A stretch of DNA of 33,561 nt, from the NCBI GenBank assembly GCA_028281465.1, contig JANQJV010000042.1, forward strand, positions 1-33,561. The letters run 5' to 3'. Positions 11,408 through 18,276 of the stretch are shown here, piece after piece; within the stretch, counting starts at the first letter, position 1, and each line of letters starts with the position of its first letter. A program made the translations under genes and the position numbers. The notes beneath the pieces are model-generated. The model had not been told where the DNA came from. It saw only the letters and a program-made list of their open reading frames with translations, and ran no database searches. Source of the DNA: Azospirillaceae bacterium. Its GTDB lineage: Bacteria; Pseudomonadota; Alphaproteobacteria; Azospirillales; Azospirillaceae.

Positions 11408-12183
11408 TGCATAAACGGGCAACGACGGCGATCGTCGTCGGCCTGGCCGCTGCCGTCGCCGCCTGGTCGGCGCCGGTCTCGGCCGCGGAACAGATCGAAT
11501 TGCCAAGCTACGAATGGTCGCACTACGGGCCGTTCGGCACCATCGATCAAGCGGCAGCGCAGCGCGGCTTCCAAGTGTACCAGCAGGTCTGCCAGTCCTG
11601 CCACGGCATGGAGCTGTTCTATTTCCGCAACCTGGCCGGGATTGGGTTCACCGAGGAACAGATCGAGATAGTCGCCTCGGAATACTTCATCCAGGACGGC
11701 TACGACGACTTCGGCGATCCGATCGAGCGGGAAGGCCGGGCCTCGGATTCCTTCCCCGACCCCTTCCCCAATGACGCCGCCGCCGCTGCCGCGAACGGCG
11801 GCGTGGTGCCGCCGGACCTGTCGGTCATGATCAAGGCCCGGCCGAGCGGCGAAGACTACATGACGGCCTTGCTCATGGGTTATGAGGACGAGCCGCCCGA
11901 AGGCTTCGACCTGACTCTCGGCAAGTACTACAACAAGTACTTTCCCGGGCATCAGATCTCCATGCCGCAAATGCTGTATGACGACATGGTGATGTATGAG
12001 GACGGCACGGAATCGACGGCGCTTCAGAACGCCAAGGACGTGACGATATTCCTGGCCTATACCGCCGAACCGCACCATGACGAGCGCAAACAGCTCGGCA
12101 TGCGCGTCATGCTGTTCCTGATCGTCTTCGCCGGCCTGATGTACGCCACCAAACGCCAGCTTTGGAGCGCGGTGAAGCATTAA
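11404..12183 (+). CDS. petC: Cytochrome c1 subunit of the bc1 complex
   Basis: About 259 residues. A basic start and hydrophobic segment ending at VSAAEQ (residue about 28) form a cleavable signal peptide. The covalent haem site CQSCH is at 63-67, with the likely axial methionine in the SMPQM stretch near residue 187. A single C-terminal anchor ([16 protein letters not shown]) is followed by a short basic tail. The protein accepts electrons from the Rieske centre and passes them to a soluble or membrane cytochrome c. The ATG at 11404 overlaps the petB stop by 4 bp and is followed at once by another ATG at 11407; GGAGAAAGC precedes both. Last gene of the operon. Confidence 0.97.
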
Positions 12184-12203
12184 CCCAGCATTAACCCAGA
12201 CCG

Positions 12204-12235
12204 ATCGTGGGATGCGAACCGACGCATCCCACGAT
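12204..12235 (+). terminator. Hairpin downstream of petC
   Basis: A perfect 13-bp stem (12204-12216 with 12223-12235) around a 6-base loop begins 21 bp after the petC stop. No T-run follows, so it may act as a weak intrinsic terminator, an mRNA-stabilising end, or a Rho-linked structure. Being symmetric, it could also block convergent transcripts from the minus-strand cassette that ends at 12399. Confidence 0.6.
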
Positions 12236-12398
12236 GCGTGAATGTCAACGCGACGGAGGTATGCCGTTTCAACCAAATCCAAATGGTCTGATCAGGCCTG
12301 CACGCCCGGCGAGGGTGTTTAGTCTGCCGGAGTGATGGAATGATAAGCGGTTTTCTTGCCGACTAGCATTCGACACGCTATCTGGAGCGCGCATGAAA

Positions 12399-15392
12399 TC
12401 AAAAGATAACCAGATTTCGGAATTGCCCTGTTCGCAAGAAGAGCGGCAGCCATGGCAGACGCCCTGACACCTGGTCGTCGTGTTCCAGATACTTGCTGTC
12501 TGGGCGATACCAACCGGGACACCACAGCGCTGTGTAGGTTGACGTCGGAACATTAAACGGCGTGACAGTCACGCCTCTCTTGTTCCCATACCCGACGACC
12601 CGATCGTCAACCGCCGTGAGCGAATTCTTGATGGCCTCCTCGGGAAAATCACGGCGACGCGCTCCCAGCATCAAGCCTCGACCAACCTTTGCCAGAAACT
12701 GCTCAAGATTCGGAGACGCATCGAACTGTAGTTCATCAAATTTTTTACGTGATCTCAGTCCGGCAAAGCGCATGCCGGCTTCATCACACGCTTTCTTTAT
12801 CATTTCTTCACCGTCGACCGAGGCACCATAGAAAACGAAATAGATATCACGCTCTCGGAGCTTTTGGAGTGCATCACCGTCCAAGGGCTGGCAAAATATG
12901 TTGCTATCCTTTTCGTCCGCGCCCAGCATGCCACAGATCGCTTTGATCTGCTTGGCTGCTTGAGTGCCGGAGGAAACATGATCATCGACAAACACGATCG
13001 GTTCTTGCGATCGTGGCTCCAATACTGCGTTGCGTAGACCTGAATGCACCTCAATACTAGAATTGTTTTCGAATAGCTTGTTAATGAACAATCGCACCAG
13101 GTGACCACTGCTCGGAGTAAAAGGAACGGCTAGAATGCGATTGCCAACCTCTTGCTGGAGCTGTAGGAGCAAACTAACTACCCCACCCTCAATCTCACTT
13201 CGGCCGAACATCTCTATATTCATAAGCAAATCTACCATTTCCCCCCTCAGCGAATATGGAAACTGCGATAGAAACACTCGAATGTGATGCCTATCTATCC
13301 GCCACTCCTGCTCCCCACTATATGCACCGCAACGCTCCAGAATACAATCAATCTTAGCTTCATCCCCTTGATATGGAAAAAGAAATGGTAAGTCGTCATA
13401 GTAACCCACTAAAGCTAGTTTACCTTGAAACTCCTCAAGCTGTGCTAAATTTGCGTGGCAGGCTCTAGAAGAAAAAGCAGTATCAAGAACGGGAAGAACC
13501 CACATTAAGAGGTCAACAGAGAACCCTGTCGTTCTTTCCCTTTTTTCATTTGAGTTTCCTTGTGGCTCGCTGTAGGTATACCTAAAAGGAACTGGATGTC
13601 TTCTTTTTGGGTGTGCACGTACTATGTCGATAAAGGCCCGCTGACATGCCAATAAGGCGATTTCCCGCCATTTGGAGTCGGTCAGAAGAACAGTTGTTTG
13701 GTGTGGAAGGTGGCCGGCATCAGTGTAGCTGGCATGCCTGAATTCGGATGCTATTACATCTTTGGAAACTGTAAGCACTCGGGCCTGCTTCAACATGGCA
13801 TCGTTCGTTTCCGGGCAAGGGATAATGCGCAGCGTTTCTGGAGCTGATCCAGCTGGCAATTGATCGCTAGTAGTACCAGCGCCCTCCAGCTTTCTGTAGA
13901 TGAGTTCACAGTGTTGCATTATCGGATTTATGACTTCATCAACATCATCAATTATCTCGACAACTTCACTCACCTCGGCCTTCACCATGCCACCAACTTG
14001 CTGCCAGACTGGGCATGATTTCTCGCGGACTGCAACATCACCCAGAACGGGTCTTATGACACTATTACCTATTATCGCTGCCTTCTTTGGCATTTGCCGA
14101 CGTCGTATAGCCCATGACATTCCGCTAACGTGGGAAACAGGGTGCTGGCAAAGTGCCTCTATCAAGCAATCTTCGGGGGTAGACCAGATTTTTAGCAGAT
14201 CTCGGAATTCCACATTGTACTTTCCAGCCTCATTCAATAGTGCAAAATAGTGACCCTCAACATTCCTGGTGAATGGATGCTGGTAGACCCGGCGATAAAG
14301 TGACAATCGACTATTGCCCATTTCAACAAATGTGTCACCCCCATGCTGATCAATGACAAATATCCGAACTGTATCGATATCATCCAAGCCACTTAAGCCC
14401 GATGCGAATGGGTCGCGAGATTTGTTGATGTCATAGACACCGGCACGCATGAAGACGCGCGGGATATCAAGACCCAAGGATATACGGCATGCATCTGCAT
14501 CTCGCTGCATATAATCGATCTTATCGGCATCGATCGACCCCGACAGTATCGATGGGAGAGCAAAATCTCCCTTGGTAATCCTATCGCCTAAAATTAGTGC
14601 TGATATGTAGTAAACATCATGAAGGCCGTGAGCGTCTCTGCTGCCAATTGTGACATCATAATACGACCTAAATCGATCGCTGACAAGCAGGGCGACCGCC
14701 AGCATCTCTGAAATCGGAGCCTTGCCGGTCGGTAGAATACTAGAACGCCCGTCATCAAATCCCTTATAATAATGGTGGAATTTATGCTTAAACTTCCCAA
14801 TCGTGAATGGGCCGATCATACAATGGAGCATGCCACTTTCTGCCCTCTCCTCTTCTGAATCCATTTCCATTTCATCATGTATCTGAAAGTATCTTTCAGA
14901 GGCGTGGGAAAATGGTCCATGGCCTATATCGTGCAATATGGCAGCATACCTTAGGTAGTCTTTCTCAGCATTGTCGAAGCTCGCAGCCTGAAGCTTCGCT
15001 GTTCCCAAGCTGGATTGCAGCGTCTTTGTCGTCTCGAATTCTTGCAGTAACCGACCAACAACCTCATAGACTCCCATGGAGTGAACAAAACGGGAGTGAT
15101 CAGCGGATGGGTAGGTAAAGGAGCTGAAGCCAAGCTGTTTAACTGATCGGAGACGTTGAAGTAAGGGACAGTTAACTAATGCAGCAGCCGAGGAGTCGAA
15201 TTCGATCATCCCCCAAACTCTATCTTTAACAGCTTGTGTTCGTGGCGGGGATTTACTGGCCTCTCTTACATACTCCTCTGTGAAACCAATTCTGTCGAAC
15301 GCCGAATTGAGAGAGGACGTCCAGCCATCCTCATCACTCAAAAAGTTCCCCCAGGCACGGAGTCGGGAGGGAAAGACGGACATTTCCATCAT
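12399..15392 (-). CDS. HD-domain (SAMHD1/dGTPase-like) protein with C-terminal phosphoribosyltransferase-like domain
   Basis: A 997-residue two-domain protein. Residues about 56-300 match the SAMHD1/dGTPase HD fold: LLQRLRSVKQLG (77-88), RFVHSMG with His104, LHDIGHGPFSH with His154-Asp155 and His158/His163, and DADKIDYMQRD with Asp290. The four expected metal ligands are therefore present. Such domains hydrolyse dNTPs, or less often other nucleotides. Residues about 700-997 resemble PRTase-like effectors: a PRPP-loop-type IVFVDDHVSSGTQ (799-811) after a hydrophobic strand, and a GYGN...W.PLFLR ending (934-987) that I associate with the PRTase-CE type in predicted conflict systems. The middle 380-700 is unassigned. 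The gene is visibly AT-richer than its neighbours, with many ATA, TTA and AGA codons. It starts 2 bp after the upstream gene (MM, 15392 or 15389) and has no strong ribosome site of its own, so it is probably coupled. Confidence 0.85.
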   Translation of the reverse strand: MMEMSVFPSRLRAWGNFLSDEDGWTSSLNSAFDRIGFTEEYVREASKSPPRTQAVKDRVWGMIEFDSSAAALVNCPLLQRLRSVKQLGFSSFTYPSADHSRFVHSMGVYEVVGRLLQEFETTKTLQSSLGTAKLQAASFDNAEKDYLRYAAILHDIGHGPFSHASERYFQIHDEMEMDSEEERAESGMLHCMIGPFTIGKFKHKFHHYYKGFDDGRSSILPTGKAPISEMLAVALLVSDRFRSYYDVTIGSRDAHGLHDVYYISALILGDRITKGDFALPSILSGSIDADKIDYMQRDADACRISLGLDIPRVFMRAGVYDINKSRDPFASGLSGLDDIDTVRIFVIDQHGGDTFVEMGNSRLSLYRRVYQHPFTRNVEGHYFALLNEAGKYNVEFRDLLKIWSTPEDCLIEALCQHPVSHVSGMSWAIRRRQMPKKAAIIGNSVIRPVLGDVAVREKSCPVWQQVGGMVKAEVSEVVEIIDDVDEVINPIMQHCELIYRKLEGAGTTSDQLPAGSAPETLRIIPCPETNDAMLKQARVLTVSKDVIASEFRHASYTDAGHLPHQTTVLLTDSKWREIALLACQRAFIDIVRAHPKRRHPVPFRYTYSEPQGNSNEKRERTTGFSVDLLMWVLPVLDTAFSSRACHANLAQLEEFQGKLALVGYYDDLPFLFPYQGDEAKIDCILERCGAYSGEQEWRIDRHHIRVFLSQFPYSLRGEMVDLLMNIEMFGRSEIEGGVVSLLLQLQQEVGNRILAVPFTPSSGHLVRLFINKLFENNSSIEVHSGLRNAVLEPRSQEPIVFVDDHVSSGTQAAKQIKAICGMLGADEKDSNIFCQPLDGDALQKLRERDIYFVFYGASVDGEEMIKKACDEAGMRFAGLRSRKKFDELQFDASPNLEQFLAKVGRGLMLGARRRDFPEEAIKNSLTAVDDRVVGYGNKRGVTVTPFNVPTSTYTALWCPGWYRPDSKYLEHDDQVSGRLPWLPLFLRTGQFRNLVIF

Positions 15393-15394
15393 GA

Positions 15395-15829
15395 CTATAG
15401 CGCCTGTCGTATTTTATTCGCTGAGTTTTCAACTATGCTCTGCCACTCTGGCTGTATTTGTTTTAACCGCTCAGTTGCAGACACTGGGTCTAGGGAAAGA
15501 TCGAGACTCACGTACTCTGGATTCCCAATGCGAATGAGACCTGGCTGTAACTTCCGGAATGTAGCCCACAAGGCATCATACGCTCCAGTGTTCGAATCAG
15601 CACTGATCTGGTCGATAATTCGCATGATCTCAACAGCGCGCCGTTCTCCCTTACTGACAGCGTCACGGTATTCGTCCTTCAGTCCGTCGAGAATCTCACT
15701 GAATGCTTTCTGAAGCCTTGGATTTTCTAGGGGAATTGACCGAACACCGTCACTCGCCAAACGAGCGACTACTGCCTTGCAGAAATCTCGAGTCGTGAAT
15801 TTCCCCGGTCCCCAAGATCGCCGTGCCAT
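15395..15829 (-). CDS. Small partner protein of the HD-PRTase gene, unknown family
   Basis: A 144-residue protein, probably mostly helical through residue 95 (an amphipathic FTTRDFCKAVVARL start, then DGLKDEYRDAVSKGERRAVEIM), with a short strand-like IGNPEYVSLDLSL stretch near 105-117 and a final helix. I do not recognise the family and see no enzymatic motif or membrane segment. The ATG at 15829 has AGGAGGGA at good spacing; an in-frame ATG at 15940 would add a poorly supported 37-residue leader. The stop is 2 bp before the HD-PRTase start, so the two are almost certainly one operon. Likely roles are adaptor, sensor or inhibitor of the large protein, all inferred from position. Base composition matches the large gene. 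Confidence 0.72.
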   Translation of the reverse strand: MARRSWGPGKFTTRDFCKAVVARLASDGVRSIPLENPRLQKAFSEILDGLKDEYRDAVSKGERRAVEIMRIIDQISADSNTGAYDALWATFRKLQPGLIRIGNPEYVSLDLSLDPVSATERLKQIQPEWQSIVENSANKIRQAL

Positions 15830-16162
15830 GGTTGCTGTCCCTCCTACACCGGGACGGCGTGTCCGTCCCAACTCTTCCATGGGGTGCAACGGCGCCCCAA
15901 GTGCCTCAAGAACAAAATACGAACATTGCGATCCATTCAACAGTTGTGCTGCCTACATCTTTACTTCTGTCCGGAAGCGTATCGCTGGCGAAGCGACTAT
16001 TTCAAGAAGCAATCTACCAAATAGGGAAATCCCTGTGTATAAAACCACAATATATTGGCCACCTGTGGATATATAGCATGATGCGACTCCATGCGCGGTC
16101 TTGATTGCCAGAAAGGGGGCTTTGACCATTCCAATCGAAGTGCAGATCCACTCGAGAGCTAC
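15830..16162. other. AT-rich spacer upstream of the HD-PRTase operon, candidate promoter zone
   Basis: I see no convincing gene here. The stretch 16018-16085 is strongly AT-rich, with TATATT and ATATATAG tracts and a CCACA...TGTGG inverted pair near 16045-16068. On the minus strand it lies about 200-250 bp ahead of the operon start. A possible -35-like TTGAAA lies near 16000. This is the most likely region for the operon's promoter, but no element can be fixed by eye. GC content rises again past about 16160, marking the right edge of the AT-rich island. Confidence 0.35.
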
Positions 16163-16547
16163 TCACAGTTCCATCTGACCAACGTCCAAACGACCCCAAT
16201 GCACACCCGACAGCCCTGCCAGTTGACAAAGCGAGCCGATATCGGGGAACTGCTCTAAGGTCGGGAAAGGAAAGCCATCGGGGTCTTCAGCCATTTCATA
16301 CGCATCTGGAAGCGTTGACCAACGCCCGCCCTCTTGCCCGCGCGGCGCATTCCGCGGCAGCGACATGCTTACCGTCCGCCAATGCGGATCCAAGAACAGC
16401 GATAGCATGAATGTCGCGGTGTCCGCCCCCCAGTCGCGCACTTCCGACGCAGGTTCAATCCCCGCGAACATCGAAATCCGTCACACACTCGGCAGTCACC
16501 GGCGAGGCCGGAATGAGCAGCAGTATCAGCGCAGCTTGGGCGACCAT
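16163..16547 (-). pseudogene. Frameshifted small exported protein, unknown family
   Basis: From an ATG at 16547, one frame gives a textbook signal peptide (a hydrophobic ALILLLIPAS core, an ASPVTA cleavage-like end) and stops at 16455 after 30 residues. The adjacent frame, open from 16471 to 16163, continues with a plausible soluble sequence containing VRDWGADTATFMLSLFLDPHWRTV and ending in HWGRLDVGQMEL. Joining the two near 16460 gives one secreted protein of about 125 residues, so I read this as a single gene broken by one frameshift. The 102-codon downstream piece alone could be annotated as a hypothetical protein. The function is unknown. Confidence 0.38.
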
Positions 16548-16708
16548 GTCCTCCGGGCTGCAGAGGCCGGCGGTAAGCGAGACGAAACGCAGGGTGGTGT
16601 CCAGCGACAGTCAAGACGAGAGTGTGGCGACAATCAGGATGAGAACGCCGGTGGTGGCGTCATGGAGTGAGGCGTAGCCCGACCGGAATGACGCCACCAC
16701 CGGCGGGC

Positions 16709-16733
16709 GGGAGCGCCAAACGCCCGTCTGGCG
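16709..16733 (+). repeat. Diverged REP-like unit
   Basis: GGGAGCGCCA, a 10-base loop, then TGGCG: the same GGGAGCG head plus hairpin layout as the units at the window ends, with a different stem sequence. It sits in the gene-free gap between the frameshifted exported protein and the IS21 stub. The rest of 16548-16788 shows nothing I can name. Confidence 0.35.
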
Positions 16734-16788
16734 GTCGTGGTGGTTCGGCAGGGTCTGGTTTTCTCACGCAGATGAGGACACCAGGCGG

Positions 16789-17040
16789 TTGCCGGGCCGA
16801 CACATCACCGACAGCCAGATGAGGCTCACCATGAAGTTCCGTCAGACCGACGGTGTGGCGATCGCCGCCGCCAAGTCGGGGTTCAGCCCGGCAAGCGGAT
16901 ACCGCCTGGAGGCGGATGACCGCATGCCATCCCAGAAGAAGCAGCCACGGGGGCGGCGCAGAGAGGACCCCTTGGTGGAGGTTTGGGACGAAGAAGTCGC
17001 TCCCATGCTGATTGCCGCACCGGCACTACCGCCGGTGCCG
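16789..17040 (+). mobile_element. IS21-family transposase (IstA) N-terminal stub
   Basis: About 80 codons from a TTG at 16789 encode the N-terminus of an IstA-type transposase: ITDSQMRLTMKFRQ, AAAKSGFS, a YRLEADDRMPSQKK stretch, and RGRRREDPLVEVWDEEVAPML. This is the helix-turn-helix region that binds element ends. Homology stops at about 17040; the catalytic DDE core and IstB are absent. It is a non-functional remnant marking past insertion or recombination at the edge of the HD-PRTase island. I could not identify terminal repeats. Confidence 0.72.
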
Positions 17041-17122
17041 CTCCAGCACAATGCCTGGACAAGGCTGCGGGCCGTGGCGAAACGCGGCGCCCCCCAAATC
17101 GACTGAAAACGCCCCCCCGGCC

Positions 17123-17313
17123 GAAAGCGCACGCAGGCCTATAGATCTCGTCCTTGCCGTAGGATAGCGCCAGCGCCCGGCACAACCGCACGACGGCGGC
17201 GCCCGGCCGGTCTCCAGGCAGCTCCGATGGTGCTGCGACGTCCCGGCGCGTTCGGCCAGCGCCGTCTGCGACAGGCCTCGGCTGCGCCGTAGCGCGGCCA
17301 ACGCCGCACCACG
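17123..17313 (-). pseudogene. XRE/MmyB-type regulator fragment, frameshifted
   Basis: On the minus strand one frame (17313-17194) reads LRRSRGLSQTALAERAG...LETGRAPP, a recognisable XRE helix-turn-helix. The continuation, AVVRLCRALALSYGKDEIYRPACAF, is in another frame (about 17203-17123). Together they give the DNA-binding domain of an MmyB-like regulator, whose ligand-binding C-terminal domain is lost at the IS21 stub. It is divergent from the alpha/beta hydrolase remnant, a common pairing for this family, so both were probably once a regulator-target module. Confidence 0.5.
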
Positions 17314-17414
17314 TCTCTGCTCCGTCGATTATGACCGCACAGTCATGGCCCCTGCGACCATCATCGGCCACCCTGCGCCGACCGACAATGACGGATGGCA
17401 CGAAGGGCCCTGCA

Positions 17415-18276
17415 ATGACCAACCCGGATCTGCCGATCGCCCGACGACAAGCCCTCGACAGCGCGCACTATGCCAACCGAACCGCCGGTACCCATGGCCC
17501 GCTTGTGGTCCTGCTGCATGGCTGTCCGGACGATGGCCGGCTCTGGCGCCACCAGGCCTGGGCCTTGTCTGCAGCCGGCTGCCGGGTAATGTGCCCGTAT
17601 CTGCTCCGCTTCGGCGCCAGCGATGCCCCAGAAGCGCTGTCCCGCTATGGCGCCGCCCGGCTCGCTGCAGATGTCATGACCCTGATGACTGCCGAGATGG
17701 ACGAACCGGTCCACCTGGTCGGCCACGACTGGGGCGCCATGGTCGGCTGGAAGATCGCTGCTACCCGGCCTGCCCGGCTGCGCTCCTTCACTGCGCTTTC
17801 GGTCGGCCGCATGGCGGCGTTGGTCGGCCTCGACCACTGCAAACCGAGCGGACTGTGGTACTTCCTGCTGAGCCAAGCGCCGTGTTGTCGCGACGTCTTT
17901 TTCGCCGACAACGCTGCCTTCATGCGCTTCTTTCTGGTCTCGCACCCCGAGAGCGAGGCCATCGCCGACCGCATGACGCGCGATCCGGCGGTCCTCACCG
18001 AGATGCAACGTATCGAACTGGCACATCCGGTCGACGCCATTCTCCTGGCGGCCCTGACGAAGCCCGCCGCCCATCAACATCCCGGTGCTCGGCCTCTGGG
18101 GCGCCGACGACCTCGTCGTGCGCGAAGCGCAAGTCCGCGACTCCACCGGCCTGATGACCGGTCCCTGGCGCTACGAGCGGGTCAACGATGCCGGCCACTG
18201 GATCATGCTAGATCGACCGGCCCCCGTCTCCGCACCCCTGCTGGCCTGGATCCGGGCCCATACACCGCCGATTCAG
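17415..18276 (+). pseudogene. Alpha/beta hydrolase (epoxide hydrolase/dehalogenase type), frameshifted
   Basis: From the ATG at 17415 the frame shows LLHGCPDDGRLW (oxyanion HGxP), GHDWGAMVGW (Asp nucleophile elbow as in epoxide hydrolases and haloalkane dehalogenases) and a cap domain, then loses homology at about 18060. The next frame resumes with PPINIPVLGLWGADD (acid residue), RYERVNDAGHW (His base) and LLAWIRAH. The break falls in a CCCGCCGCCC run at 18064-18073, consistent with a small insertion. After the homology ends near 18276 no stop occurs in the resumed frame until 18676-18678, reading through the antisense of the next gene, so the C-terminus is also damaged. A sequencing error at the GC run cannot be excluded. 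Confidence 0.75.

What the first reader, a model, noticed from the sequence alone, without database searches (positions are those of the whole stretch)
12399..15829. Two-gene AT-rich cassette: SAMHD1-like HD domain fused to a PRTase-like effector domain, plus a small partner
Seen: the 997-residue protein has a complete HD metal-site set (His104, His154-Asp155, Asp290) and a C-terminal PRPP-loop motif (IVFVDDHVSSGTQ, 799-811) with a GYGN...PLFLR tail. It is coupled at 2 bp to an unrecognised 144-residue gene, in sequence visibly AT-richer than the flanks. Known: SAMHD1 and dGTPase HD enzymes restrict viruses and phages by destroying dNTPs, and PRTase-like C-terminal effectors occur in predicted bacterial conflict systems. 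Inference: this is a mobile anti-phage or nucleotide-control system in which one polypeptide both hydrolyses nucleotides and performs or senses a phosphoribosyl/base reaction. I know of no characterised system with this exact pairing.
Basis: partly seen in the sequence, partly recalled or inferred. Interest (0 to 1): 0.88.

Follow-up and report, generated by a model that had tools for sequence, protein, structure and literature searches.

The report
SAMHD1-like nucleotidase with swappable effector
A two-gene cassette encodes a bacterial cousin of the human antiviral enzyme SAMHD1 fused to a second enzyme-like domain that related bacteria and phages have exchanged for a nuclease-like domain, together with a small regulator-like partner, which makes it a probable but untested antiviral module.

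Summary
At 12399-15829 (minus strand) lie a 144-aa gene and, 2 bp downstream, a 997-aa gene, at 48.8% GC against 63.8% in the flanks. Residues 50-563 model as a SAMHD1 catalytic core (Z 27); 13 of 17 active-site positions looked at are invariant in the 20 proteins compared. Residues 706-987 are Pfam PRTase-CE (E 5e-17) with an invariant DD....G loop.

Nine loci carry core + PRTase-CE (this one, Actinomycetota, one phage contig). Seventeen others (Pseudomonadota, Desulfosarcina; plasmids and viral contigs among them) carry the same core; the 14 uninterrupted ones end in a domain with a PD-(D/E)XK-like motif. A small partner gene, predicted winged-helix-like, accompanies all 26. One PRTase-type pair sits inside a phage tail module; neighbours of other copies match many defence families, control genes few.

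Most likely a phage-conflict system: a nucleotide-regulated dNTPase core with exchangeable effector and a winged-helix regulator. No activity, protection or mobility of this copy was shown. Eight literature searches found no paper on the pairing. New variant of known kinds.

The parts
12399..15392 (-). HD-PRTase-CE gene, 997 aa (SAMHD1-like core + PRTase-CE effector-like domain)
   Evidence: ORF; Pfam; PDB profile and fold comparison
13533..15245 (-). SAMHD1-like catalytic core, residues about 50-620
   Evidence: VIA-align to SAMHD1, Z 27.3, rmsd 3.4, 309 aligned, residues 50-563 (some rows reach 620); active-site residues
12432..13277 (-). PRTase-CE domain, residues 706-987, with DDxxxxG loop (803-809) and GYG...NxPT...TALW...W tail
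   Evidence: PF24390; invariant residues in 7 of 7 aligned PRTase-type proteins
15395..15829 (-). small partner gene, 144 aa, predicted winged-helix-like protein, 2 bp upstream of the large gene
   Evidence: Match to a profile of five PRTase-type partners, E 4.3e-7 among 488 ORFs; AlphaFold mean pLDDT 82; wHTH-type fold neighbours, Z up to 5.7
15838..15844 (-). putative Shine-Dalgarno GGAGGGA of the partner gene
   Evidence: read directly in the sequence
12200..16240 (.). AT-rich segment holding the cassette and its upstream region (approximate limits)
   Evidence: composition profile
16831..16998 (+). IS21-family istA N-terminal fragment beside the cassette (mobile-element scar)
   Evidence: 56 aa at up to 69.6% identity to annotated IS21 istA

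Best explanation
A two-gene phage-conflict (probably abortive-infection-like) system. The large protein is a SAMHD1-type dNTP triphosphohydrolase core that reads and consumes nucleotides, joined to a C-terminal effector: PRTase-CE here, a PD-(D/E)XK-like domain in a sister group. The small winged-helix-like protein is its dedicated regulator or adaptor. In the resting cell the partner and/or the allosteric state of the core keep it quiet; a phage-made change in the nucleotide pool, or a cue read by the partner, switches it on, so that dNTPs are depleted and the effector acts on a nucleotide or macromolecule, stopping phage replication. SHOWN: domain make-up, fold similarity of the core, conserved active-site residues, the recurring gene pair, the two C-terminal types, a phage-borne copy, defence-family matches among neighbours. 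INFERRED: enzyme activities, the trigger, the partner's role, the outcome for phage and cell.
For: Core: SAMHD1 fold at Z 27 and Foldseek E 6.6e-12 to a fungal SAMHD1. Of 17 active-site positions mapped from the alignment (SAMHD1 numbers and roles recalled), 13 are one residue in 20 of 20 proteins (equivalents of Q149, R164, H167, H206, D207, H210, H215, D311, D319, R366, Y374, H376, plus E where SAMHD1 has D218); K312 is K in 16 and R in 4, Y315 is Y in 17 and F in 3, L150 is L in 19. Pair: a partner gene at 9 of 9 PRTase-type and 17 of 17 other-type loci. Swap: the core tree splits by C-terminal type, nuclease-like 95/95, PRTase 83/91, together 97/90 apart from ordinary HD proteins. Conflict setting: PRTase-type pair L193 lies on the opposite strand inside a phage tail module; 7 of the 8 L193 neighbours scanned match tail, tail-terminator or holin families. 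PADLOC at E <= 1e-10: 29 families among 85 neighbours of six PRTase-type loci and 128 among 110 neighbours of nine other-type loci, against 4 among 110 control genes. Cassette GC is below that of its flanks in 12 of 14 loci measured, not in L115 and L119. Precedents: Clover CloA, a dNTPase that responds to phage-raised dTTP (PMC12265719, abstract and passages); retron III-A PRTase/WH effector genes (PMC12548924, passages); DprA-PRTase defence (PMC9122126, one passage).
Against: No activity or protection was measured. This copy's own neighbours look like ordinary chromosomal genes (cytochrome c1, HemF, FecCD transport, mfd; they were not scanned with PADLOC). In this copy alone two of the four SAMHD1 first-allosteric-site equivalents differ (Q53 for K, N74 for D; K and D in 19 of 20), so SAMHD1-like allostery may be altered or lost here; the Q375 equivalent is variable in the family. 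The PADLOC counts are families, not proteins or loci, and the lists were capped at 25; of 10 hand-picked PRTase-type neighbours only 2 matched, both in L106. Partner fold matches are middling (best Z 5.7). The large model is weak (mean pLDDT 62, with 167-205 and 384-484 under 50).
Confidence: 0.55

Rival explanations
1. dNTP depletion by the HD core is the whole defence; the C-terminal domains are localisation or oligomerisation modules without catalytic weight.
For: The HD active site is the best conserved part (13 of 17 positions invariant in 20 of 20); phage contig L194 has a core and a small upstream gene of unproven kinship but no C-terminal effector; a dNTPase alone can be the effector (PMC12265719).
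Against: The DD..G loop and tail motifs of the PRTase domain are invariant in 7 of 7, and the D, ExK and QxRRY positions are invariant in 13 of 13 nuclease-like C-termini, which suggests catalysis.
Confidence: 0.2
2. Toxin-antitoxin-like pair: the large protein is a toxin and the small winged-helix-like protein its antitoxin/autorepressor, serving to stabilise plasmids, prophages or islands rather than to sense phage.
For: Small gene first, large gene 2 bp behind it here; copies on plasmids and viral contigs; wHTH-type fold.
Against: A 900-1000 aa multidomain protein is unlike ordinary type II toxins; at L121 the partner is on the opposite strand with an HTH gene between; a partner homologue stands in L059 with no HD gene seen beside it in the ORF list.
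Confidence: 0.12
3. Nucleotide salvage enzyme: HD makes deoxynucleosides and triphosphate, PRTase reclaims bases with PRPP; a metabolic fusion, not a conflict system.
For: Both domains act on nucleotides in other proteins (family knowledge; no call).
Against: The same core with a small partner carries a nuclease-like domain instead in 14 loci; distribution is sparse: a full-length match in 1 of 385 genomes of the class, the window's own, and in 2 of 297 of the order of L106, itself included; one copy sits in a phage tail module.
Confidence: 0.07
4. Phage- and plasmid-borne weapon against other mobile elements (superinfection exclusion), recruited only now and then to chromosomes. This overlaps with the best explanation: it differs in who benefits, not in mechanism.
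For: L193 is phage-borne, L090 and L091 are on viral contigs, L025-L028 on plasmids.
Against: Eight of nine PRTase-type copies are on contigs of bacterial genome assemblies, and neighbours of copies match defence families.
Confidence: 0.15

Closest known systems
SAMHD1 and bacterial SAMHD1-like dNTPases (e.g. the Enterococcus faecalis HD protein of PDB 2o6i/3irh/4lrl)
   Same: Fold of residues about 50-563 (Z 26-27) and most active-site residues checked
   Different: Extra C-terminal effector-like domain and a linked winged-helix-like partner; no SAM domain match; two first-allosteric-site residues altered in this copy
Clover (CloA dNTPase + CloB nucleotidyltransferase)
   Same: Two-gene system with an HD dNTPase and a dedicated partner; precedent for a nucleotide-pool-sensing dNTPase in phage defence (PMC12265719, abstract and passages)
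   Different: The partner here is predicted winged-helix-like, with no nucleotidyltransferase match, and the HD protein carries a second domain
Type III-A retron effectors (PRTase + winged helix)
   Same: PADLOC PRTase_III-A models match the C-terminus (best E 7.9e-7); a PRTase together with a WH protein (PMC12548924, passages)
   Different: No reverse transcriptase family in the 22 window ORFs scanned and no Rfam match; the PRTase is fused to HD instead
DprA-PRTase defence system of P2-like phages
   Same: PRTase in a phage-borne defence locus (PMC9122126, one passage)
   Different: No DprA family in the 22 window ORFs scanned; the PRTase is fused to a SAMHD1-like core
Dgt-type anti-phage dGTPases
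   Same: HD dNTPase superfamily
   Different: NCBIfam dGTPase models score far below cut-off (27 of 405, 20.7 of 152.35 bits); the core is closer to SAMHD1

Membership tests
SAMHD1-like dNTPase | HD metal site H...HD...D | tested here: met
   H104, H154-D155, D290, 20 of 20
SAMHD1-like dNTPase | SAMHD1 core fold | tested here: met
   Z 27.3, rmsd 3.4, 309 aligned; model mean pLDDT only 62, residues 51-160 at 73-94 but 167-205 and 384-484 under 50
SAMHD1-like dNTPase | dNTP-selecting and catalytic residues (Q149, L150, R164, H215, Y374 equivalents; numbers and roles recalled) | tested here: met
   Q86, L87, R101, H163, Y370
SAMHD1-like dNTPase | first allosteric site K116, D137, Q142, R145 equivalents (recalled) | tested here: not met
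   window Q53, N74, Q79, R82, so 2 of 4; K and D in 19 of 20. Whether the site works cannot be judged from sequence
SAMHD1-like dNTPase | dNTP triphosphohydrolase activity | not testable with these tools
   needs protein
PRTase-CE (PF24390) | score above the curated cut-off | tested here: met
   63.2 bits against 27
PRTase-CE (PF24390) | PRPP-type loop with DD and G, and C-terminal GYG...W tail | tested here: met
   D803, D804, G809, G934-Y-G936, W957, W981 in 7 of 7; pairwise alignment with L029, a strong PF24390 match, shows the DD and the tail
PRTase-CE (PF24390) | PRTase fold | tested here: inconclusive
   the whole-model fold searches were filled by the HD core
Retron type III-A | reverse transcriptase and msr-msd RNA next to PRTase | tested here: not met
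   no RT family in the 22 window ORFs scanned; no Rfam match at 11500-17500, though Rfam may not cover all retron RNAs
Clover | CloB-type nucleotidyltransferase partner | tested here: not met
   partner matches no Pfam or NCBIfam family; predicted wHTH-like
Dgt-type dGTPase | NCBIfam dGTPase score above cut-off | tested here: not met
   TIGR01353 20.7 of 152.35 bits; PRK04926.1 27 of 405
DprA-PRTase | DprA gene or domain | tested here: not met
   no DprA family in the 22 window ORFs scanned
PD-(D/E)XK nuclease (sister-group C-terminus) | D...ExK motif and a matching profile | tested here: inconclusive
   D43, E53-N-K55, Q74, R76-R-Y78 invariant in 13 of 13, but no significant Pfam or PDB profile match (one member MTES_1575 REase E 0.069)
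Winged helix (partner) | wHTH fold | tested here: inconclusive
   pLDDT 82; ORC WH, RTP, MukE and LmuC among matches, Z about 4-5.7, a level that may mean only a common arrangement

The most novel reading that the evidence does not exclude
A new class of modular immune receptor: a SAMHD1-like dNTPase core that, with a winged-helix partner, senses phage-made changes in the nucleotide pool and licenses interchangeable C-terminal effectors (PRTase-CE, PD-(D/E)XK-like), in the way CARF or STING-type sensors carry swappable effectors. It would make SAMHD1-type allostery an old immune switch rather than only a dNTP drain.
Probability: 0.3. Interest if true: 0.87.

Novelty: new variant of a known kind. 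Interest (0 to 1): 0.7.

Why it matters
dNTPase defence and PRTase effectors are both known, but separately. A recurring gene pair in which a SAMHD1-type core keeps its place while the effector changes would connect human SAMHD1 biology to modular bacterial immunity, give the PRTase-CE domain a tractable context in which to find its substrate, and offer a test of whether SAMHD1-like allosteric sites act as infection sensors. Named strains carry full-length copies by their record titles (Microbacterium sp. Leaf151, Agreia sp. Leaf210, Nocardioides alkalitolerans DSM 16699).

Tried and rejected
Single-protein scans of genome contigs and viral contigs gave no relative, probably because patterns from one divergent sequence are too narrow; alignments solved it. 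E. coli genomes: no DNA match. Plasmid search with the window's own partner: no match. An early profile comparison of the window partner with seven nuclease-type partners was weak (probability 5%); with the PRTase-type family it is clear, and the two partner families compare at score 27.8 against at most 18.4 in 30 column shuffles (probability 27%, E 6.6e-4), so their common origin is likely but not proven. Empty-site test: in 10 relatives of the same family the cytochrome genes are found but the region after them is not shared, apart from one MCP-family and one NtrC-family match, so insertion could not be dated. Direct repeats at the edges: none convincing. Promoters and terminators: about as many as in shuffles. 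Structural RNA: none. PADLOC PtuB hit of the partner (E 0.0053): treated as chance. Viral fold library for the partner: nothing at E <= 0.001. The fold search of the large model tested residues 50-620 only; the PRTase assignment rests on the Pfam profile, invariant residues and local pLDDT, and in the homologues on alignment, not on a Pfam scan of each. Named phage records held matches to the HD region only, 11 records for the window protein and 11 for L106. Literature: no paper on this pairing in searches of open PMC papers; most subscription papers are not covered.

Rows left out: gene neighbours given to PADLOC were 85 of 109 for the PRTase set (108 called plus one HTH gene added; the 17 of the window and 7 near locus ends were left out), 110 of 117 for the other set (7 near locus ends left out), 110 of 119 for the control. 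Genes were called by a crude script of mine, not a gene finder. Alignments A10 and A14 hold 13 of 14 uninterrupted nuclease-type proteins (L110, near-identical to L025, left out). The 20 proteins are 7 PRTase-type and 13 nuclease-type; L163 and L193 were found later and are only in the tree. L163 is seen only to position 850 of 907 of the profile.
Full report
WHAT IS THERE. The window holds a 144-aa gene (15829-15395, minus strand) followed after 2 bp by a 997-aa gene (15392-12399). The pair lies in an AT-rich segment (48.8% GC against 63.8% for the rest of the window) between a cytochrome c1 gene and an alpha/beta hydrolase gene. On the hydrolase side lies an IS21 istA N-terminal fragment.

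THE LARGE PROTEIN. Pfam finds HD (PF01966, E 1.3e-7, residues 101-175) and PRTase-CE (PF24390, E 4.6e-17, residues 706-987). A profile of seven PRTase-type proteins finds SAMHD1-like structures in the PDB (best E 5.4e-48 for 2hek, an unnamed protein; SAMHD1 down to 3.1e-41). An AlphaFold model (mean pLDDT 62; residues 51-160 at 73-94, parts of the core under 50) aligns over residues 50-563 to human SAMHD1 with Z 27.3, rmsd 3.4, 309 residues. So the core is not just an HD motif but most of the SAMHD1 catalytic core. From the HMMER alignment with SAMHD1 I mapped its active-site residues (numbers and roles recalled). Of 17 positions, 13 are a single residue in 20 of 20 proteins (one of them E where SAMHD1 has D218); K312 is K in 16 and R in 4, Y315 is Y in 17 and F in 3, L150 is L in 19, and the Q375 position varies. 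Of four first-allosteric-site residues, Q142 and R145 are kept in 20 of 20; K116 and D137 are kept in 19 of 20, the exception being this window (Q53, N74). The PRTase loop (D803, D804, G809) and the tail (GYG, N947, PT, TALW, W981, R987) are invariant in 7 of 7.

RELATIVES. A scan of GTDB genomes with the N-terminal core gave 19 loci, which I read one by one: 6 are full-length HD-PRTase proteins (Thermoleophilia MAG, Agreia, Microbacterium, Propionibacteriaceae MAG, another Actinomycetota MAG, Nocardioides), 11 have the same core but another C-terminus or are interrupted before it, 2 are ordinary HD proteins. With four plasmid copies, two viral contigs, one more genome (L163) and one phage contig (L193), the totals are 9 PRTase-type (this window included) and 17 of the other type, 14 of these with an intact C-terminus. 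That C-terminus carries an invariant D...E-N-K...Q-x-R-R-Y pattern in 13 of 13 aligned, the look of a PD-(D/E)XK nuclease. No Pfam or PDB profile confirmed it, so it is a motif-based assignment.

THE PARTNER. A small gene stands directly upstream at 8 of 9 PRTase-type loci; at L121 it is also present, on the opposite strand about 0.5 kb away. All 17 loci of the other type have one directly upstream. Gaps run from -29 to 65 bp in the 26 cases measured, which are 8 PRTase-type, 17 other-type and L194. The PRTase-type profile was built from five partners, so those match by construction; independent matches are L163 (1.7e-39), L121 (6.6e-30), L193 (1.2e-17) and the window (4.3e-7) among 488 ORFs. 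The start of the L104 partner is uncertain. The two partner families look related but weakly. The model of the window's partner (pLDDT 82) resembles winged-helix proteins: ORC WH domains, replication terminator protein, MukE and LmuC, Z about 4 to 5.7. That level is middling and fixes no function.

EVOLUTION. In a tree of 32 cores the two C-terminal types form separate groups (95/95 and 83/91), together apart from ordinary HD proteins (97/90; 100/97 with L194). The window is on a long branch beside another long branch, so its exact place is unsure. The simplest reading is one effector exchange between two lineages on a shared core-plus-partner chassis. L194, a phage contig beside an integrase gene, has a core and a small upstream gene but no C-terminal effector; that small gene does not match the partner profile significantly (E 0.62). 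Cassette GC is lower than that of the flanks in 12 of 14 loci.

SETTING. L193 carries the PRTase-type pair on the opposite strand between phage tail genes: 7 of 8 flanking proteins scanned match tail, tail-terminator or holin families. This is a position typical of phage cargo genes (general knowledge). PADLOC matches at E <= 1e-10: 29 families in 85 neighbours of six PRTase-type loci, 128 families in 110 neighbours of nine other-type loci (Septu PtuA/PtuB, SspA/B/C, DndA, PifA, BrxC and AriA among the 25 listed), and 4 families in 110 control genes from cytochrome bc1 regions of relatives. These are family counts, several models can match one protein, and the control is a core region, so the contrast is indicative. 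Against it, only 2 of 10 hand-picked PRTase-type neighbours matched, both in L106, and the window's own neighbours look ordinary. The family is sparse: a full-length match in 1 of 385 genomes of the class (the window's own) and 2 of 297 in the order of L106, itself included. In 398 genomes of the phylum no other genome had more than partial core matches; those were not checked for a partner.

MECHANISM. I commit to a phage-conflict system with a nucleotide-regulated SAMHD1-type dNTPase core, a C-terminal effector and a winged-helix regulator. The precedent for the core is Clover, whose CloA dNTPase is switched on by phage-raised dTTP and restrained by a signal from its partner (PMC12265719, abstract and passages). 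Precedents for the effector are type III-A retrons with PRTase and WH genes (PMC12548924, passages) and DprA-PRTase (PMC9122126, one passage). That the PRTase place is taken by a nuclease-like domain elsewhere argues that the C-terminus is an effector and not the next step of a salvage pathway. What PRTase-CE does, what the partner senses, and whether this copy with its altered allosteric residues is still regulated like SAMHD1 are open.

NOVELTY. Eight literature searches found no description of this pairing; only open PMC papers are covered. DefensePredictor (PMC13092281, term search only) mentions PRTase once, in a figure legend, and HD domain not at all in the main text. I rate it a new variant of known kinds, with a bolder reading (a modular SAMHD1-based immune receptor) at 0.3.

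Noticed in passing
window 16831-16998 (+): IS21-family istA N-terminal fragment beside the cassette; 56 aa at up to 69.6% identity to annotated istA.
   Followed up: partly
window 16646-16705: Perfect 18-nt inverted repeat with 24-nt spacer between the cassette and the hydrolase gene.
   Followed up: no
window 12399-15392, residues Q53 and N74 of the large protein: Of 20 proteins only this copy departs from K and D at the equivalents of two SAMHD1 allosteric residues; possible loss or change of nucleotide regulation.
   Followed up: partly
L194:5594-7566: Phage contig with a small gene overlapping a SAMHD1-like core gene without C-terminal effector, next to an integrase gene.
   Followed up: partly
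L195:5479-8079: HD core with SAMHD1-like motifs behind a protein-kinase-like N-terminal half on a viral contig (read by eye).
   Followed up: no
L059:5926-6360: Partner-like gene on a Rhizobium leguminosarum plasmid with no HD gene seen beside it in the ORF list.
   Followed up: no
L121:8940-9762: In Nocardioides alkalitolerans the partner is on the opposite strand and an XRE-type HTH gene (by eye) stands between it and the HD-PRTase gene.
   Followed up: no
L028:6004-7952, L107:9878-11302, L111:1593-2693: Copies whose HD gene ends early (in L028 overlapping an annotated IS6 transposase gene), with the partner still present.
   Followed up: no
L028:794-4377: Annotated restriction endonuclease, 7-cyano-7-deazaguanine synthase and PfkB kinase genes close to the pair on a Methylocystis plasmid.
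   Followed up: no
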